Shown: piece after piece, positions 10,158 to 29,711 of the stretch
How the letters are laid out: the number at the start of each line of letters is the position of its first letter
Position numbering within the stretch: the first letter of the stretch is position 1
NCBI RefSeq assembly: GCF_000347635.1
Contig: NC_020514.1
Location: forward strand, 3,224,001 to 3,288,000
From: Paraglaciecola psychrophila 170
GTDB taxonomy: Bacteria > Pseudomonadota > Gammaproteobacteria > Enterobacterales > Alteromonadaceae
Length of the DNA stretch: 64,000 bases
Direction: 5' to 3'
Notes under the pieces: model-generated
The model's input: only the letters and a program-made list of their open reading frames with translations
Databases searched by the model: none
Told to the model about the DNA's origin: nothing
Made by a program: the position numbers and the translations under genes

Positions 10158-13100
10158 TTATACGTCAAGCAGTTGACTGGCGTTTAACGTGATATGAATT
10201 TGTTTGATGAAATCTGTTCTGTTAAATACTGCATGACTGAACTCGCCAGTCAACGTCAGGTCGCTGGAAGTTCTTTGTTTTCCATCAGACAAGGTTACCG
10301 TAAGCGTGGATGCACCAATGCTTAGTTCATATACAACAGGTACTTGACACCAAGTAAACCCGATACCATTTTTTGGAACAATCACTTGCTGCCATTCATT
10401 TTGTACATCTAGGTAACGGAATGGCTTTTCATGAGATACAAATTCACTACTGCGTAAAAGACTAGGTTTAAACTCAACATCACCGTTGTGAACATGAATA
10501 CCTAACTCACCAAAGCGACTCAAAATTTCTTCTTTAACCTGTCCTGTCATACCAGGTTGTTGTGCCCCAGCATGCTTAGGGGTGTGAGAGTAAGGATCAC
10601 AAGGAAATGCGCCATATTCTTCAGGTGATTTGTTAAAACCAATGCCACCACGTACCCGGTAATAAAGTCCGCCTAAACGTTGAATAAGCTCAGGCTCGGC
10701 CTCTTCTGCAACTGCAGTATAAAAGTTTTCTTTTAATGCTAGTAGTAGTTTTGACACCATGTGCCAATACACGCTGCCTAAACCTTCAAAACCAAACATG
10801 CCACCAGATCTACCAGTAAACGATTGATGATTAAACACTTGCTCATACAGGCTCTCAACTTTAGACAACATTGTTTTATCCAATGCAGGATAGTCAGCAC
10901 TTATCGCATTAAGTTGAATAATCAATTCACCATTATTTTTGATATTAGGATTAAAACGATAATAACCTGCAGCGTCTTGCATGACGATACGGGCATCAGC
11001 GGCGGCTACCATTTGTGCTAAAACAGACACCTGATTGAACGCAGCCAAAGTGATCACATTTTTATCTAAAAATGGGGTCTGAATTCTGTCTGGATATAGC
11101 ATAAAGGTTTTCTGATCAGCACGATAAACATCACTAGCAAACAATGCATCCAATACGTCTGCAGTCTGCTTAGGGTTAATAGCCCCGGAACTGATTGCCG
11201 CCACTTGTCCTTCGAGCATGGGATAAAGATTTTCTACTGTGGCTTTGTTACCATCGAAATCTAATAAATTATATGATTGGTATAAACCATCAGCACCTAC
11301 GTTAGTTTGAATTGTATGGTCGATCACAATCAATGCATTACTGAGTAATTGATTGATCATTTCAAGCGAACACTTATCTTTATGACTAAAGATTTGAGTT
11401 TTATACACCTCTTCACGATAACGCCAAGCCGCTTGGCCTAAATCCTGTAACACTTCAAACCGCAAGGTATCAGAAACTGCTATACCAGCTAGTTTTGGAC
11501 TTAATTTCTGTAGTATTTCGGTGGTTTCCCTAAGCCACAATGCGACTTCATGTGATAGTTCAGTAGTTTCTGTCTGTGTCTTTATTAAATCTTGGAGAAA
11601 ACGCACATAACGTCTTAGATAATTCAGTGTGACCATAGACAAGCCTTGACCCACCAAAGCATTGTTTGCATCATTCCATTCTGGTCTCTGGGCGTTTAAC
11701 CAAATACCACCGTCGACGACCAAGTTACCTAATTTACATAACAAAGGTACTAAAAGTTTTTCAAGTAAATTAACTTGATAAACATCACCATTTTTATCCA
11801 GTATTAACTTACCATCGGCACCAAATTGTTCGACTTTTTCAGCAATACGTTGTGCAGAATCTTCATCATAAGTCACAGTGCTTTTTGCATTGTTCAACAT
11901 ATCGTCAAATGACTTGATTCGATAAGGCACATTGGCATAACTAAAAATAGATTTATTCAGTAATTGCGCTAATAACGTGGGGTGAAACTGTTTAGACAAT
12001 TCCAACATTTTAAGCAAATAAATGATCTGGTGATCACCCCAATATCCAATGTAACTCCATGGGTCATCTGGCTCTTCCACTTCCCAATCTATTCCCCCTT
12101 TAGTAATACGGTAGGGGTTATAGCCATCTATGGTGGATGCATTCACGAATTTGGCGATAACACATTCAATAAATTCTGGATAACTGAAAGTTAAGGCTTC
12201 CCAATTTTGAAAAATATCACGCCAGTTACCTTGATATGACAATAAGCGATGTCCGGCATCATCTTTTAATTTGATTTCAAATTGGTTCCATGGACGACTA
12301 GGGTCGCCATGTCTACGCCCAAAAGTAATAGGCAAGTATTCAGCAGCTAATCGTTCTAGCTGCGAGTCATTAAGAGAGGTGATAATGCTAGAAAAATCCT
12401 GTAAAGCGATCTGTTCTGGCAACTGAGACAATCCTTCTAAATGCTTGCTGTACACATCGATATTAAAGGTTTTTAAGGTGGCAATAAAATCTCTAGTTGA
12501 TAAGGAGTATTGATTATCAAACACGCCACCTCTTAAATTATTAAACAAAGTATTGGCGTAATGGTGTACTGACACATTTTCTTCATTAGTCAGCTGAAAC
12601 CCGTCGGTCGCGGCCATAATACGAGCCAAAATATCAGAGCCTTTACTGATTGAGTCGGTCAATTCAGTGAGCACTTTACTTGGGTTACCTAAAGCTTGGA
12701 TCAACGCGCTGACCTGAGACTGATTTTGCTCAAGATTGGCGACCTGCTGCCATTTTTTAATTTTCTTTGGAGCTAATTCAAACTCTGCATTGATAAAGTA
12801 GGCACCCCGTATACCACGTTTATGACTCTCAGACTCTAGGTCTTCATTGCGCCAAAAGTGCTCAAGTTGAGCATTACACAGTAAGACTTTGTATTCATCG
12901 AAACCCATTGAAAATACAGTATTGGCCTTCAACGATTCACTGGGTTCTGCTCGGTCAGTAATACCCGAGTATAGTGTAAACATTGCCAAACCAGTTGGCC
13001 TATGCAACTCACTCCATTTATAGGCATCAACCAGGTTACTGGAAACCGTTTGAGTAAAACGTGGAGTGCCCGCAGGCAATATATTCTGCAAACCATCAAT

Positions 13101-13610
13101 CATGTTAACCGATACATTTTCGTCAGCTAAATTGTGTAATTCACACTCACGACAAAAACCAAACTCATCACTGGTCATCCACGTGTAACGAAATGCCAAC
13201 TGGAGGTCATGATTAACTTCTTCAAAACAAATTTTATCTCCCAAAGTATTTTTATATAAATTTTGGCTGATTTTATATTGGTGATTAAAATCTTTATTAA
13301 ATGCTTCCCACTTGTAAGTTTGACCTTGCTTGCTAATTTTAAGCAGAGTTTTACACCCAGTATTAGCCGCGCTCTCATGGATTTTATCTACTGGTGCATA
13401 AGGAAATAAAGCCGTTTCAGGAGAAACTCTGCCCGCGGTCAAACCACCAGTGGAGGAAACAAATAACCAGTGGTCACTGTCTGAAATTAAACTGATAAAA
13501 AAGGGTGCCATGTTCTGCATATTGCGGATGGCATAATAACGCTCACCTTGCATATCGATAAATTGGCCTACTGCATCACTACTATTTGGGGCTGAAATTC
13601 TCATCGCCAC
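10158..13610 (-). CDS. GH149-like beta-1,3-glucan phosphorylase
   Basis: A 1150-residue protein without signal peptide. The catalytic-domain motif RPEWNDANNALVGQG (Asp647 the likely general acid) parallels the WNDGMN motif of GH94 cellobiose phosphorylases, but the protein is far longer than GH94 (about 800) and fits the roughly 1100-residue GH149 family; other landmarks are GRRHGDPSRPWNQFEI and YQGNWRDIFQNWEAL. These enzymes split beta-1,3-glucan oligosaccharides with phosphate to glucose 1-phosphate in the cytoplasm, saving ATP. It is first in an operon with two GH17 genes. GH161 is the main alternative; assignment by recall of motifs and length. Confidence 0.72.
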   Translation of the reverse strand: MAMRISAPNSSDAVGQFIDMQGERYYAIRNMQNMAPFFISLISDSDHWLFVSSTGGLTAGRVSPETALFPYAPVDKIHESAANTGCKTLLKISKQGQTYKWEAFNKDFNHQYKISQNLYKNTLGDKICFEEVNHDLQLAFRYTWMTSDEFGFCRECELHNLADENVSVNMIDGLQNILPAGTPRFTQTVSSNLVDAYKWSELHRPTGLAMFTLYSGITDRAEPSESLKANTVFSMGFDEYKVLLCNAQLEHFWRNEDLESESHKRGIRGAYFINAEFELAPKKIKKWQQVANLEQNQSQVSALIQALGNPSKVLTELTDSISKGSDILARIMAATDGFQLTNEENVSVHHYANTLFNNLRGGVFDNQYSLSTRDFIATLKTFNIDVYSKHLEGLSQLPEQIALQDFSSIITSLNDSQLERLAAEYLPITFGRRHGDPSRPWNQFEIKLKDDAGHRLLSYQGNWRDIFQNWEALTFSYPEFIECVIAKFVNASTIDGYNPYRITKGGIDWEVEEPDDPWSYIGYWGDHQIIYLLKMLELSKQFHPTLLAQLLNKSIFSYANVPYRIKSFDDMLNNAKSTVTYDEDSAQRIAEKVEQFGADGKLILDKNGDVYQVNLLEKLLVPLLCKLGNLVVDGGIWLNAQRPEWNDANNALVGQGLSMVTLNYLRRYVRFLQDLIKTQTETTELSHEVALWLRETTEILQKLSPKLAGIAVSDTLRFEVLQDLGQAAWRYREEVYKTQIFSHKDKCSLEMINQLLSNALIVIDHTIQTNVGADGLYQSYNLLDFDGNKATVENLYPMLEGQVAAISSGAINPKQTADVLDALFASDVYRADQKTFMLYPDRIQTPFLDKNVITLAAFNQVSVLAQMVAAADARIVMQDAAGYYRFNPNIKNNGELIIQLNAISADYPALDKTMLSKVESLYEQVFNHQSFTGRSGGMFGFEGLGSVYWHMVSKLLLALKENFYTAVAEEAEPELIQRLGGLYYRVRGGIGFNKSPEEYGAFPCDPYSHTPKHAGAQQPGMTGQVKEEILSRFGELGIHVHNGDVEFKPSLLRSSEFVSHEKPFRYLDVQNEWQQVIVPKNGIGFTWCQVPVVYELSIGASTLTVTLSDGKQRTSSDLTLTGEFSHAVFNRTDFIKQIHITLNASQLLDV

Positions 13611-14506: not shown

Positions 14507-17476
14507 ATGAAAACCAAAATATTTAGTAAGACTCCTATAGCGGCAAGTATGTCGCTTATATTAGGCATCGCCGGTATAGCGCCAAGCTTTGCACAAGAAG
14601 CAGGAGATGAAGTAGAAGTGATCAGCGTTAAGGGAATACGCAGCAGTATGATCCAGTCTCTGGATATTAAGCGCTCTTCAAGCGGAATTGTTGATGCGAT
14701 TAGTGCCGAAGATATAGGTAAGTTTCCAGATAGTAACTTAGCAGAATCTCTGCAACGGATCACCGGTATTTCCATTGAACGCTCTAACGGTGAAGGTTCC
14801 AAGGTCAGTGCTCGTGGTTTTGGCCCAGATCGTAACCTAGTGACTTTAAATGGTCGCCAAATGCCAACCACTACAGGTGAGCGTTCATTTGATTTTTCTA
14901 ATCTTGCTGCTGAAGGTGTCAGCGGCGTAGAAGTTTACAAAACATCAAAAGCAGATGTGCCTACAGGTGGTATTGGTGCCACTATTAATATTTTAACTCA
15001 CAAACCACTCAGTAACCCTGGTCAGAAAGCAACTTTTAGTGTGGAAGCATTAGATGACACCACTACGAAGAAAGGCAGCACAACCCCACAATTGTCTGGA
15101 CTCTACTCAAATACATCTGACGACGGTAAGTTTGGTGTGTCAATATCAGGCAGTTATTCAGAACGCGAAAGTGGAAGTCAACAAGCCAAAATAGCATATT
15201 ATCGCTCTTTTTCAGGTATCCAAGATACTAATTGGAGTGGTTCTAATGCAGTGTGGGGCGGTGTAGCCAAAGACGCTTCACAAACAAATCGTCCAGGTGA
15301 CAATGACATATATTCAGTACCGCAAAACACCATTTATAAGTTTGAAGAACAGCAACGAAAAAGAACTAATGCTCAGTTAGTTCTTCAATATAAACCTATG
15401 GATAATCTTACCGCAACAGTCGATTACACCTATGTGTCAAAAACGAACGACACACAAAGCAACGTTATTTCTGCTTGGTACAATTTTGGACCTAGTGAAA
15501 ACATTTGGACAGATGGTCCTATCGCTTCACCACTGGTATATTCTGAAACCTTTGGTAATCCAGCAGATGTCGCCATAGGTGGTAGTGACTTCAGTGTTAA
15601 AGATGAAACTAAGTCTCTAGGCTTAAACCTAGAATGGCAAGCCAGTGACAACTTAAAATTAAAACTTGACCATCATGAATCTAATGCTGACAGTAACCCA
15701 AATAGTGTCTTAGGTTCGGGTAATGAAATCCAGCTAGCTGCTTTCGTTCGTCAAGCTTCTGCCACAGATTTTAGTGGTGACAGACCTGTTTTATCGATTG
15801 TAGGTGGTAATTCTATTGTTGCAGCAGACTTTGTGGTTACCGGAAGTGTGTTTACCAACAAAAAGAACGAAGCTGACATATCTCAAACCCAGTTTAGTGG
15901 TGAATACATCCTAGAAGAAGAACTAGGTAGTATCGATTTTGGTTTATCTTTAACCAGCTCAGAAAACCGCGCAAGACTTAAAAATGTGCAACGTAATAAC
16001 TGGGGTGGAGAAGGTGCCGCTGGTAACTTTGGTGATAATTTGTTTCCGCGCGGAAGCATTTCAGCTCAATTTGACAACCTAAGTGGTGGTAATTTTGATG
16101 GGTTTGGTGGCCAAGTAGAGGTCTTAGATAATTACTTCCCATTTAACTTTAATGCTGTACGAGATATTGCTGCGAGTACTTTGAGTGTGCAACCCGCAGC
16201 TTTAGGCGATTGCGGCAATTCTTTCTGCCCATCAAGTGACTACGGCTCAGAAGTAGACCAATTTACCAAAGAAGAAATGACATCTGTTTATGTACAATAT
16301 AATTATGATGGTGAAATAGGTGATATGTTTTATGACATTCACTTTGGCTTACGTTATGAAGAAACCGATGTAACTGCCACTTCCTCGGTGCCTGAGTATA
16401 TTGATTCTCCTCTTTGGAATGGTGTCAGTGAAGTTACCTTAGTGGGATCTGGGAACATCATATATGAAACCAAACAAGCCAGCTATAACCATACTTTACC
16501 AAGCATTAACTTTAATTTAAATGTGACTGATGACGTGGTTCTTCGCCTAGCTTATAGTGAAACAATTGGTCGTCCCAGATACGATCAAATGATTGGTGGT
16601 ACTAACTTGCAAGCAGGTGCAAGAATTGATGGCGGAATTGGCAATACTGGCAACCCAGCTTTGTTGCCACTTGAGTCTCAGAACATCGACATTTCAGCAG
16701 AGTGGTATTATGGCGAGGGCAGCTATGTCTCTTTGGGTTATTTCACCAAAGATGTTGAAAACGATATTTTAACACTACCAGTCGACACTCAACTTAGCAT
16801 AGTTAATCCGGCTATTGGGCCTTATGGAGATGAAGCTAGGACTGCTGTTGGTAACGATACAACGTTACAGCGTCAGTACATATATGACACTTATGGTGCA
16901 ACTGACCCGCTTGTTACTTTAGAAGCTGGCAATATCGTTATTGCAGGTAACACAGCAACTGACCCATTAATGAACTTTAAGGTTAATACTCCACTTAATG
17001 TTGCGGGCACTACTGGTTATGATGGTTTAGAATTTGCAGTGCAACACTTATTTGGTGAAAGTGGTTTTGGCGGCATAGTTAACTATACCAAAACGAATAC
17101 TGATAACGAACATGATGACTTTGTGTTAACACCTCAACTAGCTGAATTAGGTATCAGTGATTCGGCTAACGTGGTTGGCTTCTATGAAATGGACGGTTTC
17201 TCTGCACGTATAGCTTACAACTGGAGAGATAAGTTCATAGTAGCCCTTGTGCAGGATGGTGGTGCAGGTCCAGGTCCTCGTTACATTGAAGAATATGGCC
17301 AAATAGATCTAACTGTAAGTTACGATTTACCTCAAGTTGAAGGATTAAATGTATACTTTAATGCTATTAACCTGACTGCAGAAAATCTACGTACTAGTGG
17401 CCGAAGCGAAACACAGGTACTTGATTCTATTCAACAGGGTGCACGCTATGTATTAGGCGCACGTTACACTTTTTAG
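14507..17476 (+). CDS. TonB-dependent receptor for oligosaccharide uptake
   Basis: 989 residues from the ATG at 14507, chosen over an upstream TTG because TTGAGGA precedes it and a signal peptide follows directly (hydrophobic core, cleavage after PSFA near residue 29). The plug domain (about 40-170) contains SSSGIVDAISAEDIGKFPDS and LAESLQRITGISIER, the hallmark of the Xanthomonas/Caulobacter-type carbohydrate receptors. The 22-strand barrel ends in RYVLGARYTF with terminal Phe. It sits in the outer membrane and probably imports beta-glucan oligosaccharides, given the flanking GH149, GH17 and GH3 genes. A terminator follows at once. Confidence 0.93.
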   Translation: MKTKIFSKTPIAASMSLILGIAGIAPSFAQEAGDEVEVISVKGIRSSMIQSLDIKRSSSGIVDAISAEDIGKFPDSNLAESLQRITGISIERSNGEGSKVSARGFGPDRNLVTLNGRQMPTTTGERSFDFSNLAAEGVSGVEVYKTSKADVPTGGIGATINILTHKPLSNPGQKATFSVEALDDTTTKKGSTTPQLSGLYSNTSDDGKFGVSISGSYSERESGSQQAKIAYYRSFSGIQDTNWSGSNAVWGGVAKDASQTNRPGDNDIYSVPQNTIYKFEEQQRKRTNAQLVLQYKPMDNLTATVDYTYVSKTNDTQSNVISAWYNFGPSENIWTDGPIASPLVYSETFGNPADVAIGGSDFSVKDETKSLGLNLEWQASDNLKLKLDHHESNADSNPNSVLGSGNEIQLAAFVRQASATDFSGDRPVLSIVGGNSIVAADFVVTGSVFTNKKNEADISQTQFSGEYILEEELGSIDFGLSLTSSENRARLKNVQRNNWGGEGAAGNFGDNLFPRGSISAQFDNLSGGNFDGFGGQVEVLDNYFPFNFNAVRDIAASTLSVQPAALGDCGNSFCPSSDYGSEVDQFTKEEMTSVYVQYNYDGEIGDMFYDIHFGLRYEETDVTATSSVPEYIDSPLWNGVSEVTLVGSGNIIYETKQASYNHTLPSINFNLNVTDDVVLRLAYSETIGRPRYDQMIGGTNLQAGARIDGGIGNTGNPALLPLESQNIDISAEWYYGEGSYVSLGYFTKDVENDILTLPVDTQLSIVNPAIGPYGDEARTAVGNDTTLQRQYIYDTYGATDPLVTLEAGNIVIAGNTATDPLMNFKVNTPLNVAGTTGYDGLEFAVQHLFGESGFGGIVNYTKTNTDNEHDDFVLTPQLAELGISDSANVVGFYEMDGFSARIAYNWRDKFIVALVQDGGAGPGPRYIEEYGQIDLTVSYDLPQVEGLNVYFNAINLTAENLRTSGRSETQVLDSIQQGARYVLGARYTF

Positions 17477-17507
17477 TAACAGCTTAATGTATTAAGTCAA
17501 TTATTGA

Positions 17508-17543
17508 GGCCGCTGGATTAACGTAAATCAGCGGTCTTTTTTT
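17508..17543 (+). terminator. Rho-independent terminator after TonB-dependent receptor
   Basis: CCGCTG (17510-17515) pairs with CAGCGG (17529-17534), extended by ATT/AAT with one bulge, and a run of seven T follows. It separates the receptor from the halogenase cluster, allowing stronger receptor expression. Confidence 0.8.
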
Positions 17544-17718
17544 ATTAACCAAAGTTTTTTTCCAAAAAAGATAAAATAATACTTACTATGAAACCTAATT
17601 TACCTGTTACGTATGATCAACATTGTCTTTTTGACCGTAGAAGTAATGTATTAAAGGGTTAAAATTAAGCGCAAATTATAGTGATCCTACTTTTCCTTTT
17701 TTTGAAAAATGTTTAATA

Positions 17719-19283
17719 TTGAGTAACCAAATGCACAAGCCATTAAAAAAAATAGTGATAGTTGGTGGTGGGTCTGCTGGATGGTTAACTGCAGGTATCA
17801 TTGCCGCTGAACACTCCACAGATGCCGTTTCAGGCATTGAGGTCACACTTGTTGAATCGGCAGATGTTCCCACTATCGGAGTAGGTGAAGGTACATGGCC
17901 AACTATGCGAAGCACCCTTAAAAAAATGGGTATTTCGGAAACCGATTTTTTACTTGAATGTGATGCCAGTTTTAAGCAAGGCACAAAATTTATAAATTGG
18001 CAGACCAATACCAATGAGTATTATTATCATCCTTTTACACTACCGCGTGGATTTAATGAAACCAATCTTGCCCCATTTTGGCAACCTTTCAGAGATAAAA
18101 TAAGTTTTGCTGATGCAGTGTGTATGCAAAGTCACTTGGGAGAACATGACTATGCACCAAAACAAATTTCAACTGCTGAATACGACTTTAGTGCCAACTA
18201 TGGCTATCATTTAGATGCTGGTAAATTTGCGTTTTTTTACAAAAACATGGTGTAAAAAATTTAGGTATCAAACACATAGTCGATCATGTTGGCCAAGTTA
18301 ACGCCGCAGAAAATGGAGATATTGCCTCTATAACTACCCAGCAACATGGTGATATATCAGGTGACCTATTTATTGACTGTACTGGTACCTCATCAATTTT
18401 GTTAGCTAAACACTATTCAGTGCCTTTTGTTGGTAAAAAACATATTTTATTTAATGATTCTGCCTTGGCCGTGCATGTGCCTCACCAAACCCCAGACAGC
18501 CCAATTTCTTCTTTTACATGTTCTACAGCACAAACTGCAGGTTGGGTATGGGACATAGCTCTGCCGTCTCGTCGAGGCGTCGGTTATACCTACTCCAGCG
18601 CTCACCTCTCTGATGAAAAAGCAGAGCAAACATTACGCAACTATATTACCCCTATAATAGGTAAAAGTGCGGCTCAGGTTAGTAGTATTCGTAAAATCGG
18701 CTTTAACCCTGGGCATAGAGAAAAGTTTTGGCACAAAAACTGTGTAGCGGTGGGCTTAGCCGCAGGATTCATTGAGCCTTTAGAAGCGACTGCATTAGCA
18801 TTAATTGAGCTTTCGGCCAAAATGATCAGCGAACAACTACCCGCCACACGCCAAACAATGGACATAGTAGCGAAACAATTTAACATTAAGTTTTTGCATC
18901 GCTGGGACAACATCATTGAGTTTCTAAAGTTACACTATGTATTAAGTAAAAGAGTTGATTCAGATTATTGGCGAGATAATAGGGATGAAACGCATTTCCC
19001 TGAAGGTTTACAGGAACAATTGATACTTTGGAAAACCCAGTCTCCATATCACTATGATGGTGACGAAGCAGGAAAAATGTTTCCCCCAGCTAGTTTTCAA
19101 TATATTTTATATGGTATGGGCTTTATTACCAACTCTGCTCGCAAAAAAAGAATCGATTTATCTAAAAATGCTGATAGGTTATTTAATGAAAACGTTAAGC
19201 ACAGCAGACAACTGCTAGCTGCTTTACCGACTAATCGTGAATTGATTAATAAAATTAAACAATATGGCTTACCAAAAATATAG
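17719..19283 (+). pseudogene. Flavin-dependent tryptophan halogenase family protein, one-base frameshift
   Basis: Two frames (17719-18255 and 18399-19283) form one PF04820-type protein of about 520 residues. The N-terminal part has the FAD motif VGGGSAGW, GVGEGTWPT and the Lys of FKQGTKF that aligns with the halogenase catalytic lysine; the rest has GWVWDIALPSR (the WxWxI motif) and GFIEPLEATAL. Frame is lost in the seven-T run near 18233: one extra T gives an uninterrupted reading through FLQKHGVKNLGIKHIVDHVG. So it is either a very recent mutation or a base-calling error. These homologues accompany TonB receptors; a true halogenase reaction is unproven. Start is TTG 17719 or ATG 17731. Confidence 0.8.
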
Positions 19284-19352
19284 CCAGCACATACGTTTTA
19301 ATAAACAACTGGCTATCAAAATGTTAAGCAGTGTTAATGAACAAAATTTGGA

Positions 19353-20087
19353 ATGAAAATGGCAAATAATGTACTACTCAATAGTATCGAACATCAAGAA
19401 TTAAAAGTAATTACCGAACGTTCAAAACAATACGGTGATAACCTTTGGTATAGCCTTACTTTTCCAACCGAGTTTAGAAGTGTTCAAGCTTATTACCCAA
19501 TATTTTTTAACAAAGATGCCAGTACAGGGCAATTCATTTCTGTGGCATTATTTGGTTTTCAAGATCAGGAAAACTTGTTTTTAACAGGGAACAAATGGGA
19601 CGCAGAATATATTCCATTAAGTGTAGCCAGACAACCCTTTTTAATCGGTGTTCAAAAAATCAATGAGGATGGGGAAGATAAGGAACAAAGGGTATTACAC
19701 ATTGATATAGACCATCCAAGAGTCAACAAGGAACAAGGCGAAGCATTATTTTTAGAATTTGGTGGTAACACACCTTATTTAGATAGTTGCGCCGATATGC
19801 TTGAAACCATGCATCATGGGATCTTGGATAGTCAGATTTTTATAGGCCTGTTAATAGAACATGAATTATTAGAGCCGTTCTCTTTAGACGTTGAGTTAAA
19901 CGATAATTCCAAACACCAAATGGTAGGGTTTTATATAATTAATGAAGAAAAATTAACTGAACTCAATAGCGAAATATTAACGACATTACATGTAAGCGGC
20001 TATCTGCAAGCCATTTATATGGCTATTGCGTCACAATCTAATATACGGGGTTTATTAAATAGAAAAAATAAGCTTTTAGGTTTGTAG
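19353..20087 (+). CDS. SapC family protein
   Basis: 244 residues, no signal peptide or membrane segment. It matches the SapC family: WYSLTFPTEFRSVQAYYPIFF near the start, LFGFQDQENLFL, WDAEYIPLSVARQPFLIG, and the late FYIINEEKLTELNSE segment. The family recurs next to halogenase-like and cupin genes in TonB-receptor loci; the biochemical role is unknown. ATG at 19359 (MANNV) is an equally likely start. It lies 69 bases after the first halogenase homologue and 31 bases before the cupin, so the cluster is probably one transcript. Confidence 0.85.
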   Translation: MKMANNVLLNSIEHQELKVITERSKQYGDNLWYSLTFPTEFRSVQAYYPIFFNKDASTGQFISVALFGFQDQENLFLTGNKWDAEYIPLSVARQPFLIGVQKINEDGEDKEQRVLHIDIDHPRVNKEQGEALFLEFGGNTPYLDSCADMLETMHHGILDSQIFIGLLIEHELLEPFSLDVELNDNSKHQMVGFYIINEEKLTELNSEILTTLHVSGYLQAIYMAIASQSNIRGLLNRKNKLLGL

Positions 20088-20118
20088 TTATTAACTGCAT
20101 GTTTTAACGGATATTCTT

Positions 20119-21135
20119 TTGCTAAATATAAATAAAAAAGTCAAAGAAATTAATTATTGCCAGCCAGGTGATATTCCTGAATTTGTCCTAAGCTCTTCGC
20201 AACCATTAGTTCTTAAAGGTTTTGCAGACAAATGGCCTGCAGTAATTACAGGCAAAGAATCCTCTAGCAAGGCTGCTGATTATCTACGGAATTTCTATGC
20301 AGATATCCCTGTTAATGCTTACTACGGCGAGCCTGAAACAAAAGGCCGGGTTTTTTACAACGACAAGATGACTGGGTTCAATTTTGTAAGTTCAAAAGCT
20401 AATCTAAATCAGGTATTAGACAAGTTACTTGCACACATCGACGATCCCAACTCTCCGACTATGTATGTAGGTTCTACCGAAATTAATAAGTGGTTTCCAG
20501 GATATAATGAAACCAATAATGCGTCCATCGATCACCTGAATCCATTAATTACGATATGGTTAGGCAACCGCAGTAAAATAGCGGCTCATTATGATGTTCC
20601 AAATAATTTGGCTTGTTGTGTGGTGGGACGTCGAAAATTCACATTATTTCCCCCAGAACAAATTTCTAACTTATATGTTGGTCCAATGGAGTTTTCACCT
20701 GGTGGACAAGACATAAGTTTAGTTGACTTTGATGAGCCTGACTTGGTTAAGCATCCAAAATTTGAACAGGCATTAGCATCCGCACAAGTGGCTGAATTAG
20801 AAGCCGGTGATGCTCTTTTCCTTCCTAGTATGTGGTGGCATCATGTTGAAAGTTTAGATGCACTGGGAGTATTGGTTACTCACTGGTGGCGAGATAGTCC
20901 CGCATTTATGGGCCGCCCTAACAATGCATTAATGTTAGCTATGCTTAGTTTACGAGATTTACCATTGGCACAGAGACAAGCATGGAAAGCGCATTTTGAT
21001 TATTATGTTTTCAGTCACGATGAGGAAAATCTAGAGCATATTCCTGACACCGTGAAGGGTGTGTTGTCAAAACCACACGATAAATTAGCAGCAAAAAGAT
21101 TAAGAGCTGACCTTTTAAATAAATTAAAACAATGA
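20119..21135 (+). CDS. Cupin-like JmjC-type Fe(II)/2-oxoglutarate oxygenase (PassA-type)
   Basis: 338 residues, Cupin_8/JmjC fold. The metal ligands are visible: HYD (His157, Asp159) after WLGNRSKIAA, and a distal His at 241 or 242 in FLPSMWWHHVESL; YNETNNASIDHLNPLITIW and RRKFTLFPPEQISNLYVGP are also typical. It probably hydroxylates a protein, peptide or small molecule; the substrate is unknown. The start is TTG at 20119; no ATG fits upstream. It lies between SapC and the second halogenase homologue. The fragment at 23518 is a decayed paralogue of residues 148-203. Confidence 0.87.
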   Translation: MLNINKKVKEINYCQPGDIPEFVLSSSQPLVLKGFADKWPAVITGKESSSKAADYLRNFYADIPVNAYYGEPETKGRVFYNDKMTGFNFVSSKANLNQVLDKLLAHIDDPNSPTMYVGSTEINKWFPGYNETNNASIDHLNPLITIWLGNRSKIAAHYDVPNNLACCVVGRRKFTLFPPEQISNLYVGPMEFSPGGQDISLVDFDEPDLVKHPKFEQALASAQVAELEAGDALFLPSMWWHHVESLDALGVLVTHWWRDSPAFMGRPNNALMLAMLSLRDLPLAQRQAWKAHFDYYVFSHDEENLEHIPDTVKGVLSKPHDKLAAKRLRADLLNKLKQ

Positions 21136-21196
21136 TCGATACACATTAAGTTAGTTCGTCAGGCTAAACGTTAACATTAATTACTAAGGTTTCATT

Positions 21197-22696
21197 TTGA
21201 AAACACAATATAAAAAAATCAATAAGGTAGTTATTGCCGGAGGCGGCACTGCAGGATGGATGGCTGCAGCAGCATTTGCAAAATTAATAGGTAAAAATCT
21301 AGAGATTGTACTGGTTGAATCTGATGATATCCCGACGGTTGGTGTTGGAGAAGCCACCATTCCCACATTGCATATTTTTCATCAGTTATTGGGGATCAGT
21401 GAGCAAGAGTTTATGGCTGCTACTAATGCTACCTTTAAATTAGGTATTTCCTTTGAAAACTGGCGCGATGTTAAAAAAGACTATTTACACTCTTTTGGCT
21501 TTTTAGGACAAGGTTGTTGGGCTGCTGGTTTTCAGCACTTCTGGCTAAAAGGACGTGAACGCGGTATCGCCTCTGATATCGGTGATTATGTTCCAGAGCA
21601 TTTGGGTGCTAGGGAAGGAAAATTTGCGGTGCTAGCTGGACAGGACCTAAATCATGCTTATCATCTTGACGCTGGTCTTTATGCCAAATTTTTGAGAAAG
21701 ATAGCTGAAAAAAACCATGCCAAACGTGTCGAAGGAAAAATTGATAAAGTCAATTTGAATGATAAATCAGGCTTCATTGATTCACTTACTCTTGCATCTG
21801 GTCAAGTAGTCGAAGGCGATTTATTTATTGACTGTACCGGCTTTAAAGGATTATTGATCGAAGAAGCATTACACACTGGTTATGATGACTGGAGCCATGT
21901 TCTTCCTTGCGACAGCGCCATTGCAGTACAAACTAAAACCGTAGGTAGACCCGTACCTTATACCCGGGCAATTGCACACGATGCTGGCTGGCAATGGCGA
22001 ATTCCATTACAAAATCGAACCGGTAATGGTTTTGTTTTTTGCAGCAAATATATGTCTGACGATGAGGCTAAAAAAACATTGTTAGCCAATATTGAAGGTG
22101 AGCGTTTAAACGAACCACGCGTCATAAAATTTAAAACTGGCCAGCGAAGAAAACACTGGGTTAAGAACTGCGTAGCAATGGGGCTGTCATCTGGGTTTAT
22201 TGAACCATTAGAGTCCACTGGCATACATCTGTTTCAAAGGGCAATTGTGCGCTTATTGCTAATGTTTCCGTCACAAGGTATTAAGCAGTCAGATATAGAT
22301 GAATACAATGTTCAAACAAAAGAAGAAGCAGAGCACATAAGAGATTTTATTATTCTTCACTATAATTTGACCGAGCGAAAAGACACCCCTTTTTGGCGTC
22401 ACTGTAGCAGTATGGAGGTGCCAGAAAGCCTGAAACATCGTATGACTTTATTCAAAGACAGTGGACAAGTATTTAAGAAAGCAGACGAATTGTTTGGTGA
22501 AACCTCATGGATACAAGTAATGATGGGGCAAGGGCTAATGCCAGAACAATATCATCCTATTGTCGATATGATGGGCGATGATGAACTGCGTGATTTCTTA
22601 AATAATATTAAATCTGGGGTGAAGCGAAAAGTTCAAAATTGGCCGGATAGTAATGATTTTATCAAGCACTATTGTCCATCTAGTGTGAACACATAG
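21197..22696 (+). CDS. Flavin-dependent tryptophan halogenase family protein
   Basis: 499 residues, intact. FAD-binding VVIAGGGTAGW (11-21), GVGEATIPT (49-57), the halogenase Lys81 in ATFKLGISF, WQWRIP (265-270), FIDCTGFKG and GLSSGFIEPLESTGIHL are all present, so the residues needed for FAD use and hypohalite chemistry appear conserved. Start is TTG at 21197, preceded by AAGG; no nearer ATG. Homologues cluster with carbohydrate TonB receptors and their true reaction (halogenation or other oxidation) is not established. A hairpin terminator follows at 22715. Confidence 0.88.
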   Translation: MKTQYKKINKVVIAGGGTAGWMAAAAFAKLIGKNLEIVLVESDDIPTVGVGEATIPTLHIFHQLLGISEQEFMAATNATFKLGISFENWRDVKKDYLHSFGFLGQGCWAAGFQHFWLKGRERGIASDIGDYVPEHLGAREGKFAVLAGQDLNHAYHLDAGLYAKFLRKIAEKNHAKRVEGKIDKVNLNDKSGFIDSLTLASGQVVEGDLFIDCTGFKGLLIEEALHTGYDDWSHVLPCDSAIAVQTKTVGRPVPYTRAIAHDAGWQWRIPLQNRTGNGFVFCSKYMSDDEAKKTLLANIEGERLNEPRVIKFKTGQRRKHWVKNCVAMGLSSGFIEPLESTGIHLFQRAIVRLLLMFPSQGIKQSDIDEYNVQTKEEAEHIRDFIILHYNLTERKDTPFWRHCSSMEVPESLKHRMTLFKDSGQVFKKADELFGETSWIQVMMGQGLMPEQYHPIVDMMGDDELRDFLNNIKSGVKRKVQNWPDSNDFIKHYCPSSVNT

Positions 22697-22714
22697 CTTC
22701 TACACTGTTTAAAT

Positions 22715-22740
22715 GGGTGAGAACACTACCTGTCTCACCC
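22715..22740 (+). terminator. Hairpin terminator within halogenase cluster
   Basis: GGGTGAGA (22715-22722) pairs perfectly with TCTCACCC (22733-22740) around a ten-base loop; TTATAATTTTT follows. It would attenuate transcription into the DUF6445 gene. Confidence 0.7.
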
Positions 22741-22767
22741 TTATAATTTTTAGGATCTTATTAACGC

Positions 22768-23487
22768 ATGCAAGAGAAACAACCAAGTTTCCTAATTAAT
22801 CCCCATATTAAAGCTGAAATTATTCAAGTAGGGGTAGAAAATACACCTCTTATAATAATCGATGACCTTGCAATCGATAATACTGATGTCATCAATTTTG
22901 CCTGCACTGCAAGCAAGTTTTCTGATGATCAAGTCACCTTTTATCCTGGTATTCGTGCCACTTTACCTCAACCATATGTCATAACTGTCCTGCAAGCGGT
23001 CTATCGTGGAATTTGTCAAGTTTACAAGATACCAATCGAGTTAAACCTTGAGCCATTGAATCAGAGCTATTCCCTGCTGACTAAACAAGAAAGCGAATTA
23101 CACTTTTTACAGTGCATGCCTCACTTCGACACCAGCAAACCCTACCATTTCGCAGTGTTACATTATTTGAATCCAGGCTCTCATGGAAACACCGGTTTTT
23201 TTCGTCATATTCCAACTGGGTATGAGAGGATCAGTGAAAATAGATGTGAAAATTATGTTGATTCTGTAAAAAAGTACGTCACTAAAAATGGAGAACCTTC
23301 AAAGAATTATGTGACGAGTTCTGATAAGCATTATGAGCTTTATTATGAAGTTGAATATAAGCCAAATCGCCTAGTTATATACCCAGGAAATTTATTGCAT
23401 TCAACTATAGTCAAAACAAAAACAGACATTGATAGTTCCCCCTACACAGGTCGCCTGACAGCCAATATGTTTATAGATTTCCGTTGA
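22768..23487 (+). CDS. DUF6445-type putative Fe(II)/2OG oxygenase
   Basis: 239 residues, soluble. It shows a prolyl-hydroxylase-like ligand set: His119 and Asp121 in MPHFDTSKPYHFAVLHYL, distal His211 in VIYPGNLLHSTI, and Arg229 in TGRLTANMFIDF, the expected 2-oxoglutarate contact. This fits DUF6445, a family that travels with halogenase/SapC/cupin genes at TonB loci. Substrate unknown. ATG at 22768 follows TTAGGATC. It is the last intact gene of the cluster and gives a second putative oxygenase beside the cupin. Confidence 0.8.
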   Translation: MQEKQPSFLINPHIKAEIIQVGVENTPLIIIDDLAIDNTDVINFACTASKFSDDQVTFYPGIRATLPQPYVITVLQAVYRGICQVYKIPIELNLEPLNQSYSLLTKQESELHFLQCMPHFDTSKPYHFAVLHYLNPGSHGNTGFFRHIPTGYERISENRCENYVDSVKKYVTKNGEPSKNYVTSSDKHYELYYEVEYKPNRLVIYPGNLLHSTIVKTKTDIDSSPYTGRLTANMFIDFR

Positions 23488-23517
23488 TATAACAACATTT
23501 TAATTAGCTTCTAGGTT

Positions 23518-23688
23518 GGTAAACAATCGAGGATTGCAGAGCGATATGATGTCACCGACAACGTAGCTGGTGTAACTAATCTAGTTGAGAGTAAGCGGCA
23601 TTTTATTTTATTCCCACCGACTCAATTAGATAGTCTATACATCTGCCCACTGGATTTCACACCTGCTTGCGCGCTTTTTAGTGAATAA
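23518..23688 (+). pseudogene. Remnant of a second JmjC-type cupin gene
   Basis: A 56-codon open stretch whose translation (GKQSRIAERYDVTDNV, then KRHFILFPPTQLDSLYICP) aligns with residues 148-203 of the intact cupin at 20119 (GNRSKIAAHYDVPNNL, RRKFTLFPPEQISNLYVGP). It has no start, the metal-binding HYD has become RYD, and the rest of the gene is gone. It is a decayed paralogue left at the end of the cluster. Confidence 0.75.
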
Positions 23689-25649: not shown

Positions 25650-27881
25650 ATGTCATCAAGTCTTTCAAACGAAGTATCAATTGAGCCCCACTCGCGCTCC
25701 GCTGAACCCGATATGTTGGTCGGTATTTTGGATAGTATGACAGTGCAAGAAAAAATTGGCCAAATGAGTCAGATTTTTAGTCACTCGGAACATATAACTG
25801 AACACCTTGCCTACTCGATTCGCCAAGGCCGGGTAGGCTCGATACTTAATGAAGTTAGACTACACACGGTAAATGAGTTACAACGTCTAGCAGTGGAAGA
25901 AAGTCGACTAGGCATTCCTCTGCTAATTGGTCGTGATGTAATCCATGGTTTTAACACTATATTTCCAATCCCTTTGGGACAAGCCGCAAGTTGGTGCGTT
26001 GAAACGGTCAAGCAATGCGCTCATATCAGTGCACTAGAGGCTGCCTCTGTAGGTGTTAATTGGACCTTTGCGCCAATGATCGATATTAGCCGGGATCCGC
26101 GTTGGGGTAGAATTGCAGAAAGTTTAGGTGAAGATCCTTATTTATGTTCTGTCCTAGGTGTCGCCATGTTGCAAGGTTTTCAGGGTGATGAATTACATAA
26201 AAATGGCAGTATTGCGGCCTGCGCCAAACATTTCGCAGGATACGGTGCGGGTGAAAGTGGTCGTGATTACAGCACCACTAATATTCCAGAAAATGAACTT
26301 CGCAATGTATATCTGCCGCCATTTAAAGCAGCTGCCGATGCGGGTGTCGCCACGTTTATGGCAGCTTTTAGCGATCTAAATGGTGTGCCCGCCTCAGGTA
26401 ATAAGTGGTTAATGACTGACATATTGCGTGAAGAATGGGATTACAAAGGCTTTGTAGTTAGCGATTGGGAGTCAGTTATACAATTAACGACTCATGGTTT
26501 CAGCAAAGACAACAAAGACGCAGCTTACGAAGCCGCAAATGCTGGGATTGATATGGAAATGGTTAGCTCCGCATATTTTGAGCACTTACCAGATTTAGTA
26601 GCCGAAGGCCGCATAGACATGCGACAAATTAACAACGCGGTCAAAAAAATATTACACCTTAAGTGGCAGTTAGGCTTATTTGACTCTCCGTACACTGATG
26701 CAAGCTTGCTACCTAAACCTCTCAACTCGCAAAATTTACAGGCAGCCAAAGATGCTGCAATCAAAAGTTGTGTGTTGCTCAAAAATGATAAAAATATACT
26801 GCCACTATCAGCAGGTTCTTTACACTCAGTCGCTATTATTGGGCCATTAGCGGATGATCCTTATGAGCAACTAGGCACCTGGATATTTGACGGTGATCCC
26901 CAGCACAGTCAAACCTGTTTAACCGCTATTACACAAGAATTGTCAGGTAAGGCCAATATTCATCATGTTAAGGCGATGCAAACATCTCGCAGTCATGATC
27001 AGGCTGACTTTAAACAGGCAGTTAAATCGGCTTCCACTGCAGATGTAGCCATATTAATTTTAGGTGAAGAGTCCATCTTATCAGGCGAAGCTCATTGCCG
27101 AGCTGAAATTGATTTACCCGGTTGCCAAGAGCAGTTAATCAACGCTATCGCCGAAACAGGCACGCCCATTGTGTTAGTGATCATGGCCGGTAGACCCTTA
27201 ACGATAGAAACAGTATTGCCTAAAGTAGATGCGGTTTTGTTTGCTTGGCATCCAGGCACAATGGGTGGACCCGCCATCGCAGATTTATTATTTGGTAAAG
27301 CCTGTCCCTCAGGTAAGTTGCCCGTTACCTTCCCCAGAAAAGTAGGACAAGTGCCGATTTACTACGCACAAAAACATTCTGGCAAGCCTGCAACGGAACA
27401 GGCTTTTATACACATGGATAATATACCTGTGCATTCACCGCAAACCTCACTTGGTATGGCCGCCACTCATTTAGACACTCATTTTAGTCCCTTATTTCCA
27501 TTTGGTTTTGGCCTTTCTTATACTCAATTTAGTTATCAAAACCTTGAGCTTAGCCACAAAACATTAAAGCTAGGCGAGACATTAGTGGTTCGTGTGTTGT
27601 TGACTAACGTTGGCGATACTGATGGCGAAGAAATAGCACAGTTGTATATTCGCGATCTAGTGGGCAGTGTGACCCGCCCAGTCAAAGAATTAAAAGATTT
27701 TAAGCGTGTAAAGCTCACTGCTGGCAAAAATGAATGGGTCACATTTGAACTGAGTACTGATAAACTGGCGTTTTATGATAGGAATATGCAGCTTAAAACA
27801 GAGACTGGACAATTTCATCTTTGGTTGGGGGCTTGTTCACAAACTGGGCTGAAGGATGAGTTCGAGATAATTGATGATTAA
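25650..27881 (+). CDS. GH3 beta-glucosidase (BglX-like), cytoplasmic
   Basis: 743 residues. The N-terminal GH3 barrel (about 25-330) contains GRDVIHGFNTIFPIPLG, the KHF motif (193-195) and nucleophile Asp272 in GFVVSDWESV; the alpha/beta sandwich (about 370-600) follows, with GEAHCRAEIDLPG likely holding the acid/base Glu; a fibronectin-III-like domain ends it (VGDTDGEEIAQLYIRD, SVTRPVKELKDFKRV). Unlike periplasmic BglX it lacks a signal peptide, so it should release glucose from imported beta-glucosides in the cytoplasm. It overlaps the next GH3 gene by eight bases. Confidence 0.92.
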   Translation: MSSSLSNEVSIEPHSRSAEPDMLVGILDSMTVQEKIGQMSQIFSHSEHITEHLAYSIRQGRVGSILNEVRLHTVNELQRLAVEESRLGIPLLIGRDVIHGFNTIFPIPLGQAASWCVETVKQCAHISALEAASVGVNWTFAPMIDISRDPRWGRIAESLGEDPYLCSVLGVAMLQGFQGDELHKNGSIAACAKHFAGYGAGESGRDYSTTNIPENELRNVYLPPFKAAADAGVATFMAAFSDLNGVPASGNKWLMTDILREEWDYKGFVVSDWESVIQLTTHGFSKDNKDAAYEAANAGIDMEMVSSAYFEHLPDLVAEGRIDMRQINNAVKKILHLKWQLGLFDSPYTDASLLPKPLNSQNLQAAKDAAIKSCVLLKNDKNILPLSAGSLHSVAIIGPLADDPYEQLGTWIFDGDPQHSQTCLTAITQELSGKANIHHVKAMQTSRSHDQADFKQAVKSASTADVAILILGEESILSGEAHCRAEIDLPGCQEQLINAIAETGTPIVLVIMAGRPLTIETVLPKVDAVLFAWHPGTMGGPAIADLLFGKACPSGKLPVTFPRKVGQVPIYYAQKHSGKPATEQAFIHMDNIPVHSPQTSLGMAATHLDTHFSPLFPFGFGLSYTQFSYQNLELSHKTLKLGETLVVRVLLTNVGDTDGEEIAQLYIRDLVGSVTRPVKELKDFKRVKLTAGKNEWVTFELSTDKLAFYDRNMQLKTETGQFHLWLGACSQTGLKDEFEIIDD

Positions 27882-29711
27882 AAACCCAAAAGATACAGCA
27901 CTCAAAAATAGAGTAATGGCTTTATTAAGTAGCATGACACTTCAACAAAAGGTGGGTCAAATGACTCAGGCTGAACGTACAACATGTTCACCAGAGCAAG
28001 CGAAAAAATATCATATTGGTTCCATATTAAGCAGTGCAGGCTCTTGCCCGGGTAACAACCAACTGCAAGATTGGGTAGAAATGAATGACGCCTATTGGAT
28101 GGCATCAACTGAAAAAGACCAGAACCATTTAGGCATTCCCATTATCTATGGGCTAGATGCAGTTCATGGTAACAACAATGTAAATGGTGCCACTGTATTC
28201 CCACATAATATTGGTTTAGGTGCCGCTAATGATACCCAGCTGATAAAAAAAATAGCCCAAGTAACAGCAAAAGAAGTACTGGCCACAGGTGTTGACTGGA
28301 CGTTTGCGCCTAACTTAGCCATGGCTCGAGACCATCACTGGGGCAGATGTTACGAAAGCTTCTCTGAAATGCCCGCGATCACCAGCCAATATGCAGCAAA
28401 AATAGTTGATGGTTTGCAAGGGCAGTTATCTGAAAACGCTGTCATGGCCTGCGCTAAACACTGGATTGGTGACGGCGGCACTCACCATGGTATTGATCAC
28501 GGCGATACCATATTAAGTTTTAACGAGCTACAGGCTTTACACATGCCGCCTTTCCAAGCAGCTATCAAAGCTGGGGTATTAAGTGTAATGGTGTCGTTTA
28601 GCAGTTGGAACGGCGATAAGTGTCATGCCCACAAATTTTTATTAGTCGACACGTTAAAAGAAAAATGGACTTTAACGGTATTGTTATATCAGATATGCAG
28701 GGTATAGATTATTTGGCTGATGACTTTTATTTAGGCGTGGCGAAAGGTGTTAACGCTGGTATTGATATGTTTATGGTGCCAAGAAATTGGCCAATGTTTA
28801 TAGAGCATTTACTCAGCCATGTTGAATTGGGCACTGTGTCTATTGATCGTATCAACGATGCAGTAAGCAGAATATTAACGGCTAAGCTTGCTCTTGGCCT
28901 CTTTGAAAAGCGCAGGCCTAGAGATCGCAAATGGTCTAATCATGATTCATTTGGCAGTATTGCACATCGACTTGTCGCCCGAGAGGCCGTAAGGAAATCA
29001 TTAGTTCTACTCAAAAATGAACATAATATTTTACCCTTATCAAAATCGACTAGAGTATTGGTCGCGGGTAAAAGTGCTAATAATATAGGCCATCAATGTG
29101 GTGGGTTTACGATTACTTGGCAGGGCGTGTCGGGCAATGAAAAAATTGCAGGTGGCACCTCAATTTGGCAAGGAATAAACGACATAACAAAGCACGCACA
29201 GTTAAGTGAAAACGGTGCTGGTTTAGATGCAGATCCACAGCAACATGATGTGGCAATAGTCGTTATAGGGGAATCACCTTACTCAGAAGGCATGGGTGAT
29301 ATCAGAGACGATGATAAAAAAATCACCGACGTCGGCTCAAATATTAATGGCCAAGTTAAACTATTAAAGGCTTATGGGCATTCCATTGAGTTAAGCAAAC
29401 TTTACCCTGAAGATTTACAAACCATCAAAAATATCAGCAGTAAAGGCATTCCAGTAGTGACGATTATAATTTCTGGTAGACCATTAATTGTGGACCAAGA
29501 GCTAGCTCATTCAGAGGCTTTCATTACTGCTTGGTTACCTGGTTCAGAGGGGCAAGGGGTTGCTGAGGTATTGTTTGGAGACTTCAATTTTCAAGGAAAG
29601 TTGTCCCATAGCTGGCCACAACTTTCACAACCAAAAATGCATGAAAGTGATAAAAATGATAAAAGTTACCAACCACTTTTCTCCTATGGGTTTGGTTTAA
29701 ATTATCAGTAA
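27874..29711 (+). pseudogene. GH3 beta-glucosidase, one-base frameshift
   Basis: Two frames (27874-28707 and 28620-29711) make one GH3 protein of about 610 residues with barrel and sandwich but no fibronectin-like tail. AGSCPGNNQLQDW, YGLDAVHGNNNV, ACAKHWIGDGGT and the nucleophile in GIVISDMQGIDYL are present, plus GGFTITWQG and IISGRPLIVD later. The frame breaks in a five-A run near 28660; one more A reads through as LKEKMDFNGIVISD. It is either recently inactivated or a base-calling error. The domain set resembles cytoplasmic or periplasmic exo-1,3/1,4-glucosidases; no signal peptide. It starts inside the end of the first GH3 gene. Confidence 0.82.

What the first reader, a model, noticed from the sequence alone, without database searches (positions are those of the whole stretch)
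17477..23688. TonB-receptor partner set with two halogenase homologues, SapC and two different putative oxygenases
Downstream of the carbohydrate TonB receptor are two PF04820 halogenase-like flavoproteins, SapC, a JmjC-type cupin and a DUF6445 protein, with a decayed second cupin after them. The catalytic Lys and WxWxI motifs remain in both flavoproteins, and the HxD...H ligands in both oxygenases. Such sets recur at TonB loci in Alteromonadales and Xanthomonadales but have no known chemistry. They could together modify the receptor, an imported ligand or a secreted peptide (inference). No halogenated small molecule pathway is nearby.
Basis: partly seen in the sequence, partly recalled or inferred. 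Interest (0 to 1): 0.75.

Follow-up and report, generated by a model that had tools for sequence, protein, structure and literature searches.

The report
Oxygenase cassette tied to glucan receptors
A sugar-importing outer-membrane receptor travels with its own set of halogenase-like and oxygenase-like enzymes, in the same gene order in many bacteria, which suggests an uncharacterised chemical modification step tied to the receptor; one of the enzymes in this genome carries a frameshift.

Summary
The gene set is real: TIGR01782 receptor, FDH-A, SapC, Cupin_8, FDH-B, DUF6445, then a decayed Cupin_8. Correction: FDH-A is split by one frameshift near 18,226-18,231. The association is strong: 40 of 40 sampled halogenase places in the family sit directly downstream of such a receptor, and 46 of 80 named loci carry the exact order receptor-FDH-SapC-Cupin_8-FDH, across alpha-, beta- and gammaproteobacteria. 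Cassette make-up follows the receptor's clade, not the genome. The flavoproteins are of distinct types: the FDH-B clade keeps the halogenase Lys, Glu, Ser and Thr (74 of 74), the FDH-A clade has Ala for Ser (48 of 48), as does a sister clade made mostly of second enzymes of alpha-glucan sets (12 of 12). DUF6445 is modelled as a prolyl/lysyl-hydroxylase-like 2OG oxygenase. FDH-B's closest solved relatives are Xcc4156, 9luq and BrvH; for BrvH and Xcc4156 no native substrate is known. I found no peptide gene and no receptor residue common to all sets, so the substrate is open. Best guess: cytosolic oxidative modification of the receptor polypeptide before export (0.35).

The parts
14507..17476 (+). 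TonB-dependent receptor, TIGR01782 (Xanth-Caul) type
   Evidence: 623 bits over a cut-off of 310; plug and barrel in Pfam
17510..17543 (+). terminator-like hairpin (6 bp stem, 13-base loop, then T-rich run) between receptor and cassette
   Evidence: Read directly from the sequence; not reported by the simple scan, whose loop limit is 8; function not tested
17731..19283 (+). FDH-A (PF04820), frameshifted near 18226-18231: N-terminal part 17731-18255, C-terminal part open from about 18225 in another frame to 19283
   Evidence: nearest solved relatives of the C-terminal part: 2pyx, 9ltb, 9lu2
19353..20087 (+). SapC family protein (PF07277), 244 aa, no fold match found
20119..21135 (+). Cupin_8 (PF13621), FIH/JMJD5-like 2OG oxygenase with HxD...H
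21197..22696 (+). FDH-B (PF04820), intact, complete halogenase motifs; best solved relative 6y1w (Xcc4156)
   Evidence: 6y1w named as Xcc4156
22768..23487 (+). DUF6445 (PF20043), predicted prolyl/lysyl-hydroxylase-like 2OG oxygenase
23494..23682 (+). remnant of a second Cupin_8 gene (homology around the HxD region, then stops)
   Evidence: tblastn best E 1e-15; 37-50% identity in the 12 best rows shown, over about 55-65 residues

Best explanation
This is a receptor-dedicated oxidation cassette. Shown: a conserved gene set in which one TIGR01782 glucan receptor is followed by a Ser-to-Ala FDH (A), SapC, an FIH-like Cupin_8, a canonical FDH (B) and, in some lineages, a PHD/P4H-like DUF6445; the cassette follows the receptor's clade. 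Inferred: few of the enzymes have a hydrophobic N-terminus, so they act in the cytosol. FDH-B halogenates or hydroxylates an aromatic side chain, Cupin_8 and DUF6445 hydroxylate aliphatic side chains, and SapC presents the substrate. The substrate most likely is the freshly made receptor polypeptide before Sec export, as QhpG dihydroxylates a Trp of its partner protein. In the window FDH-A is frameshifted, so this copy would lack that step unless one of the two intact A-type paralogues of the genome acts in trans.
For: 40 of 40 fetched FDH places are contiguous with the receptor on one strand. In named genomes 65 of 80 loci have the receptor; 46 of 80 show the full order and 10 more lack only FDH-A. 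B-type FDHs of one genome next to different receptor clades are 49.1% identical (9 pairs), no more than pairs of different genomes and clades (49.4%), against 60.0% for different genomes next to the same receptor clade (962 pairs); identity matrices of receptor and FDH correlate, r 0.89 over 61 loci, 0 of 2000 permutations as high. Beta-glucan receptors (GH3, GH1, GH16, LacI) and alpha-glucan receptors (alpha-amylase, pullulanase) both carry FDHs although glucans have no aromatic ring. Cupin_8 resembles FIH and JMJD5 and DUF6445 resembles OGFOD1, LH3 and PHD2, which are protein hydroxylases (established knowledge); its fold list also holds small-molecule enzymes such as HygX and PasI. QhpG shows a flavoprotein dihydroxylating a peptidyl Trp (abstract of PMC7876137); FDH-B and the FDH-A fragment match the QhpG model only weakly. 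The Xcc4156 paper proposes larger substrates, possibly peptides.
Against: No Trp or His position distinguishes all halogenase-linked receptor clades from unlinked ones: W340, W653 and W922, conserved in the 'big' clade, are absent in the 'up' clade. Loss of FDH-A is not matched by loss of a receptor aromatic residue at the thresholds used. FDHs of this kind also exist without a receptor: 7 of 80 named loci had room upstream and no receptor of this type. 13 of 20 fetched receptors have no FDH nearby; one of those 13 (L192) has Cupin_8 and SapC. A TYW5 structure (tRNA hydroxylase, recalled) is also among the Cupin_8 matches (3al5). The cytosol argument rests on a crude hydrophobicity count: 27 of 265 FDH, 6 of 116 SapC, 2 of 95 Cupin_8, 9 of 68 DUF6445, against 146 of 188 receptors.
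Confidence: 0.35

Rival explanations
1. The cassette makes or tailors a small molecule or a short peptide (encoded elsewhere or very short) that the receptor imports, binds or is regulated by.
For: Free amino acids or indoles are substrates of many PF04820 enzymes; BrvH and Xcc4156 act on indole; MibH acts on a peptide (passages).
Against: No small ORF is shared by more than 7 of 95 cassette loci; the shared one at 7 loci is sigma-70 region 4 like, its antisense frame also scores at 7, and all other groups printed hold 4 loci or fewer. Neighbours are mostly glycoside hydrolases, MFS and LacI; no NRPS family appears among the 25 families listed per scan, and an RND exporter family (ACR_tran) appears once each in two scans (lists capped). 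One diffusible product would not need a separate cassette for each receptor (inference).
Confidence: 0.25
2. The enzymes act on the imported material, for example an aromatic aglycone or phenolic attached to glucans, after uptake.
For: Most cassette proteins look cytosolic and the loci lie among sugar-utilisation genes.
Against: The ligand families implied are neutral glucans; the same FDH family serves alpha- and beta-glucan loci; Cupin_8 and DUF6445 are closest to protein hydroxylases.
Confidence: 0.12
3. The set modifies another cytosolic or envelope protein (a regulator, TonB/ExbB, a nascent lipoprotein) and is co-located with the receptor for co-regulation only.
For: Co-location alone cannot separate physical partner from regulon partner; some cassettes sit beside sigma-factor-like genes; 7 named FDH loci have no such receptor nearby.
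Against: FDH and receptor distances correlate within the 'big' clade as well (r 0.84, 36 loci), though shared inheritance of one operon would also give this.
Confidence: 0.2
4. The association is selfish or accidental: the genes travel together with no shared step.
For: FDH-A is lost in several branches and is frameshifted here.
Against: Same order across three classes of Pseudomonadota and invariant catalytic residues in both oxygenases.
Confidence: 0.04

Closest known systems
Xcc4156 (6y1w) and BrvH (6frl), indole-halogenating flavin-dependent halogenases
   Same: FDH-B aligns end to end (644 and 464 bits), with the same Lys, Glu and Ser; the papers describe an open substrate site
   Different: No native substrate known; a word search of those two papers for TonB found no mention. 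FDH-A is of a different type (Ser to Ala)
2pyx (solved 'tryptophan halogenase'), 9ltb, 9lu2
   Same: Closest solved relatives of the FDH-A fragment
   Different: No function of these entries was looked up
QhpG, peptidyl-Trp dihydroxylase of quinohemoprotein amine dehydrogenase
   Same: Flavoprotein acting on a Trp inside a partner protein (PMC7876137 abstract): a model for how the cassette might work
   Different: Weak match only (27 bits against a cut-off of 240); no radical SAM family among the listed neighbour families; not a member
FIH, JMJD5, TYW5 (Cupin_8/JmjC hydroxylases)
   Same: HxD...H ligands and 64 bits to FIH
   Different: Substrate unknown; similarity to FIH covers residues 153-262 only
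OGFOD1, lysyl hydroxylase LH3, PHD2, P4H (2OG oxygenases)
   Different: 11% identity; no credible sequence-level match in PDB
Carbohydrate-utilisation TonB receptor (CUT) loci of Xanthomonas
   Same: Sugar receptors set among carbohydrate genes (title and passages; the rest recalled)
   Different: The main text of the 2007 paper (PMC1790865) does not contain the words halogenase or SapC; its supplements were not seen

Membership tests
Flavin-dependent halogenase (FDH-B) | GxGxxG, catalytic Lys, WxWxIP, catalytic Glu and Ser, halide-site Thr | tested here: met
   FDH-B of the window has all. In the tree-defined B clade (74 enzymes, support 0.90) K, P, E, S and T are 74/74. The B group was picked by motif, so its 69/69 is partly circular
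Flavin-dependent halogenase (FDH-B) | FADH2- and halide-dependent halogenation of an aromatic substrate | not testable with these tools
   Needs enzyme assay; relatives do it on indole in vitro
Flavin-dependent halogenase (FDH-A) | Same motif set | tested here: not met
   In the tree-defined A clade (48, support 1.00) Lys and Glu are kept 48/48, but Ser is Ala in 48/48, Pro of WxWxIP is G/A/S in 48/48 and the last residue of the halide loop is Ala in 47/48. The window copy reads WVWDIA and EPLEATA and is frameshifted
QhpG peptidyl-Trp dihydroxylase | Score above the NCBIfam cut-off (240) | tested here: not met
   27 bits (FDH-B) and 19.7 bits (FDH-A fragment)
Cupin_8 / JmjC-like 2OG oxygenase | Pfam score above cut-off and HxD...H facial triad | tested here: met
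   233 bits over 27.4; H157, D159, H241 in 101 of 101
2OG-Fe(II) oxygenase, prolyl-hydroxylase-like (DUF6445) | Double-stranded beta-helix fold with HxD...H and a 2OG-binding basic residue | tested here: met
2OG-Fe(II) oxygenase, prolyl-hydroxylase-like (DUF6445) | Prolyl or lysyl hydroxylase activity | not testable with these tools
   Needs assay
SapC (PF07277) | Pfam score above cut-off | tested here: met
   236.9 bits over 28.9; the name comes from an S-layer protein (recalled) and says nothing of function here
TIGR01782 TonB receptor | Score above cut-off, plug plus barrel | tested here: met
   623 over 310 bits; Plug and barrel
RiPP biosynthetic cluster | A conserved precursor-peptide gene beside the enzymes | tested here: not met
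   None among 1417 small ORFs of 95 loci, BLASTP E 1e-3; a precursor under 20 aa, overlapping a large ORF or elsewhere in the genome is not excluded

The most novel reading that the evidence does not exclude
An outer-membrane transporter maturation system: a pair of flavoproteins (one S-type halogenase, one A-type) with FIH-like and PHD-like hydroxylases and SapC as adaptor chemically modify the nascent glucan receptor in the cytosol, so that a working sugar receptor of this clade carries halogenated and hydroxylated residues. This would be the native role of the Xcc4156/BrvH type of halogenase.
Probability: 0.28. Interest if true: 0.88.

Novelty: new variant of a known kind. Interest (0 to 1): 0.62.

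Why it matters
Halogenases of the Xcc4156/BrvH type have been crystallised and assayed, but their natural substrate is unknown. Their position behind a glucan TonB receptor, in a fixed gene order across three bacterial classes, turns that question into one protein and one deletion to test. If the receptor is modified, it would be a new kind of post-translational maturation in the outer membrane, and it would concern the uptake of laminarin- and starch-type glucans.

Tried and rejected
Receptor signature: columns conserved in halogenase-linked receptors and not in others. Many clade-specific columns were found in the 'big' clade (W340 98%, W515 100%, W653 97%, W922 100% of 102 linked receptors against 36, 27, 9 and 32% of 22 unlinked). 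No Trp or His column is shared by the 'up', 'big', 'fsd' and 'fff' clades (W922 is in three of the four); an Asp at 404 is at 100% in all four linked clades and 32% in unlinked receptors, a column not followed up. W515 did not stand out in the first alignment. Tyr-to-Phe changes at 751 and 942 in receptors lacking Cupin_8 fall in one clade of the tree and count as one event. These are leads, not evidence.

Literature: (all 10 searches). No paper of this open-licence library held 'tryptophan halogenase', 'SapC' and 'TonB-dependent receptor' together; DUF6445 gave 0 papers. 'Tryptophan halogenase' with 'TonB-dependent' gave 3. [quoted passage not shown] the two Pseudomonas papers were not opened. 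One search gave 2, one of them the same paper; the other was not opened. Passages only were seen of PMC5945002, PMC7336383, PMC8269204, PMC2996990 and PMC1790865; abstract and outline of PMC7876137. Subscription journals, preprints and supplements were not searched, so the association may be in print.

Rows dropped before counts: the 'unlinked' group holds 22 of 37 receptors whose downstream chain is 'none'. I left out 10 (two small clades) whose members mostly lie beside a cassette, 1 inside a linked tandem and 4 of about 1065-1215 aa near DUF6445 genes. Fragments under 400 aa were left out of the FDH tree, the frameshifted FDH-A of the window and a truncated FDH of L136 included. In one search the B and 'up_f2' groups were picked by the very motif that is then counted; one search repeats the count on tree clades. 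For the neighbour scans I passed 104 of 108, 78 of 86, 67 of 87 and 81 of 94 listed ORFs, leaving some out by hand without a fixed rule (lists; scans); the lists themselves stop at a residue cap, so the last loci are thinly covered. The script filed L223 as cut off because of a short reverse-strand match; I count it as having room.

Sampling: 60 FDH and 40 receptor places were drawn at random from the 150 listed of each search. 40 FDH places and 20 receptor places were fetched; the third FDH batch was not asked for. The 150 are the best-scoring, so the 40 of 40 may not hold for remote members.
Full report
What is there. The window is position 3,224,001-3,288,000 of a single-contig 5.41 Mb genome. 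Its genus appears to be Paraglaciecola: a named P. chathamensis contig (BAEM01000008, 108,686 bases) has the same length as contig C56 of the same-genus genome G084. From 14507 on the + strand lie a TIGR01782 receptor, FDH-A, SapC, Cupin_8, FDH-B and DUF6445, then a Cupin_8 remnant at about 23494-23682. FDH-A is broken by one frameshift at a run of seven T. Downstream are an MFS_2 transporter and two GH3 genes, the second in two frames.

The association. The genome has 9 PF04820 matches. Eight lie in four clusters with TIGR01782 receptors; the ninth is a weak partial match (21.6 bits) elsewhere. In 98 genomes of the family, PF04820 at E <= 1e-60 occurs in 90, TIGR01782 at E <= 1e-90 in 96 and DUF6445 at E <= 0.001 in 51. 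Of 40 FDH places fetched at random from the 150 listed, all 40 have a receptor contiguous on the same strand. Of 20 receptor places, 7 have an FDH within the 20 kb, so only some receptors of this family carry the cassette. In 80 named loci found with an FDH-B profile (an FDH is there by design) 65 have the receptor: 46 receptor-FDH-SapC-Cupin_8-FDH, 10 without the first FDH, 5 receptor-FDH-FDH, 4 other orders. Of the 15 without, 8 begin within 1.8 kb of the locus start and 7 have upstream room but no such receptor (L223, L238, L247, L268, L270, L273, L281). The organisms include Alteromonadales, Cellvibrionales, Xanthomonadales (Lysobacter, Pseudoxanthomonas), Burkholderiales (Massilia, Duganella) and Sphingomonadales (record titles; orders recalled).

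The cassette follows the receptor. In a tree of 122 receptors clades differ in cassette: 'big' mostly (FDH-A)-SapC-Cupin_8-FDH-B-(DUF6445), with some that lack SapC or Cupin_8; 'up' one or two FDHs; 'fsd' FDH-A-SapC-DUF6445, with sigma-factor-like genes beside some; 'fff' three FDHs and DUF6445, with one single-FDH member. B-type FDHs of the same genome beside different receptor clades are less alike (49.1%, 9 pairs) than those of different genomes beside the same clade (60.0%, 962 pairs); different genome and clade gives 49.4%. For A-type the figures are 47.4% (4 pairs), 54.9% (225 pairs) and 49.6%. Receptor-FDH correlation is 0.89 over 61 loci and 0.84 within 36 'big' loci. This fits inheritance as one unit; it does not by itself prove contact.

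Ligands. Neighbours of 'big' loci are rich in GH3 (10 of 104 ORFs), with GH1 and GH16 (4 each), MFS and LacI, and those of named, taxonomically wider loci likewise (GH3_C 8 of 81, GH16 3). Neighbours of 'up' loci are rich in alpha-amylase domains (12 of 78) and pullulanase-type domains. So beta-glucan and alpha-glucan receptors (inferred ligands) both carry FDHs, and the implied sugars have no aromatic ring.

Two kinds of flavoprotein. In a tree of 138 FDHs, the B clade (74, support 0.90) keeps Lys81, Glu339, Ser340 and Thr341 in all; the A clade (48, support 1.00) keeps Lys and Glu but has Ala for Ser in all, and G, A or S for the Pro of WxWxIP; a third clade (12, support 1.00; 11 are second FDHs of 'up' pairs, 1 is in a DUF6445-SapC locus) also has Ala for Ser in all and keeps the Pro. 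The second and third clades join (61 members, support 0.97), so the change may have one origin; one member of that joint group, L133, keeps Ser. The middle FDH of the triple sets (3) has lost Lys and Glu and looks like a pseudoenzyme. FDH-A is absent from several 'big' operons, including the four 'big' operons fetched from congeners of the window (L079, L086, L095, L099), which the tree places in separate branches, so it is dispensable. The window's frameshift fits that trend, but a homopolymer sequencing error is possible: the GH3 gene at 27871-29711 also changes frame, and two other receptors of this genome are split. Two intact A-type FDHs exist elsewhere in the genome (L134, L135).

How it may work. 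Shown: cassette, conservation, enzyme classes. Inferred: cytosolic action (an N-terminal hydrophobic stretch in few cassette proteins but most receptors) and a polypeptide substrate, because the two oxygenases resemble protein hydroxylases, FDH-B relatives have open sites, no peptide gene is present and the sugars offer no target. The receptor is the most constant partner, hence my first choice at 0.35. Against it, I found no Trp or His position common to all halogenase-linked receptor clades. QhpG shows that a flavoprotein can oxidise a Trp in a partner protein (abstract); the cassette is not a member of that family by score.

Known or new. The components are known families and the operon may be familiar to annotators. 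In the open-licence library I found no paper that puts it together (passages of one hit). I therefore call it a new variant of a known kind, with a bolder reading kept in the novel case.

Noticed in passing
window 27871-29711: The second GH3 gene is read in two overlapping frames (27871-28707 and 28620-29711), so it carries another frameshift; together with FDH-A this may point to homopolymer errors in the assembly.
   Followed up: partly
own genome, L140 and L141: Two further TIGR01782 receptors are split into two open frames each (755+167 aa and 202+617 aa).
   Followed up: no
L088, L103, L105: Receptor-FDH-FDH-FDH-DUF6445 sets whose middle FDH has lost the catalytic Lys and Glu in all three and the last Gly of GxGxxG: a likely pseudoenzyme or adaptor.
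   Followed up: partly
L075, L083, L089, L097, L102, L110, L134: Small sigma-70 region 4 genes (4 of 7 tested, all match Sigma70_r4_2 and weakly Sigma70_ECF) beside receptors or cassettes of the FDH-SapC-DUF6445 type or their sister receptors, hinting at FecA-like signalling.
   Followed up: partly
own genome, L136 4120-5135: A second decayed Cupin_8 gene, in three fragments, upstream of the receptor-FDH-FDH locus.
   Followed up: no
L223, L238, L268, L270, L273, L281: Solitary halogenase homologues without a receptor of this type, in Cellvibrio and other genomes; no shared neighbour seen by eye.
   Followed up: partly
receptor residue D404 (1005-aa numbering), window about 15668-15670: This Asp is at 100% in all four halogenase-linked receptor clades and in both second-receptor clades, and at 32% in unlinked receptors; not aromatic, but a possible hydroxylation site.
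   Followed up: no
window 10158-13610 (-): A 1150-aa ORF without a Pfam match at 1e-8; by eye it resembles large GH94-type phosphorylases (recalled, not tested).
   Followed up: no
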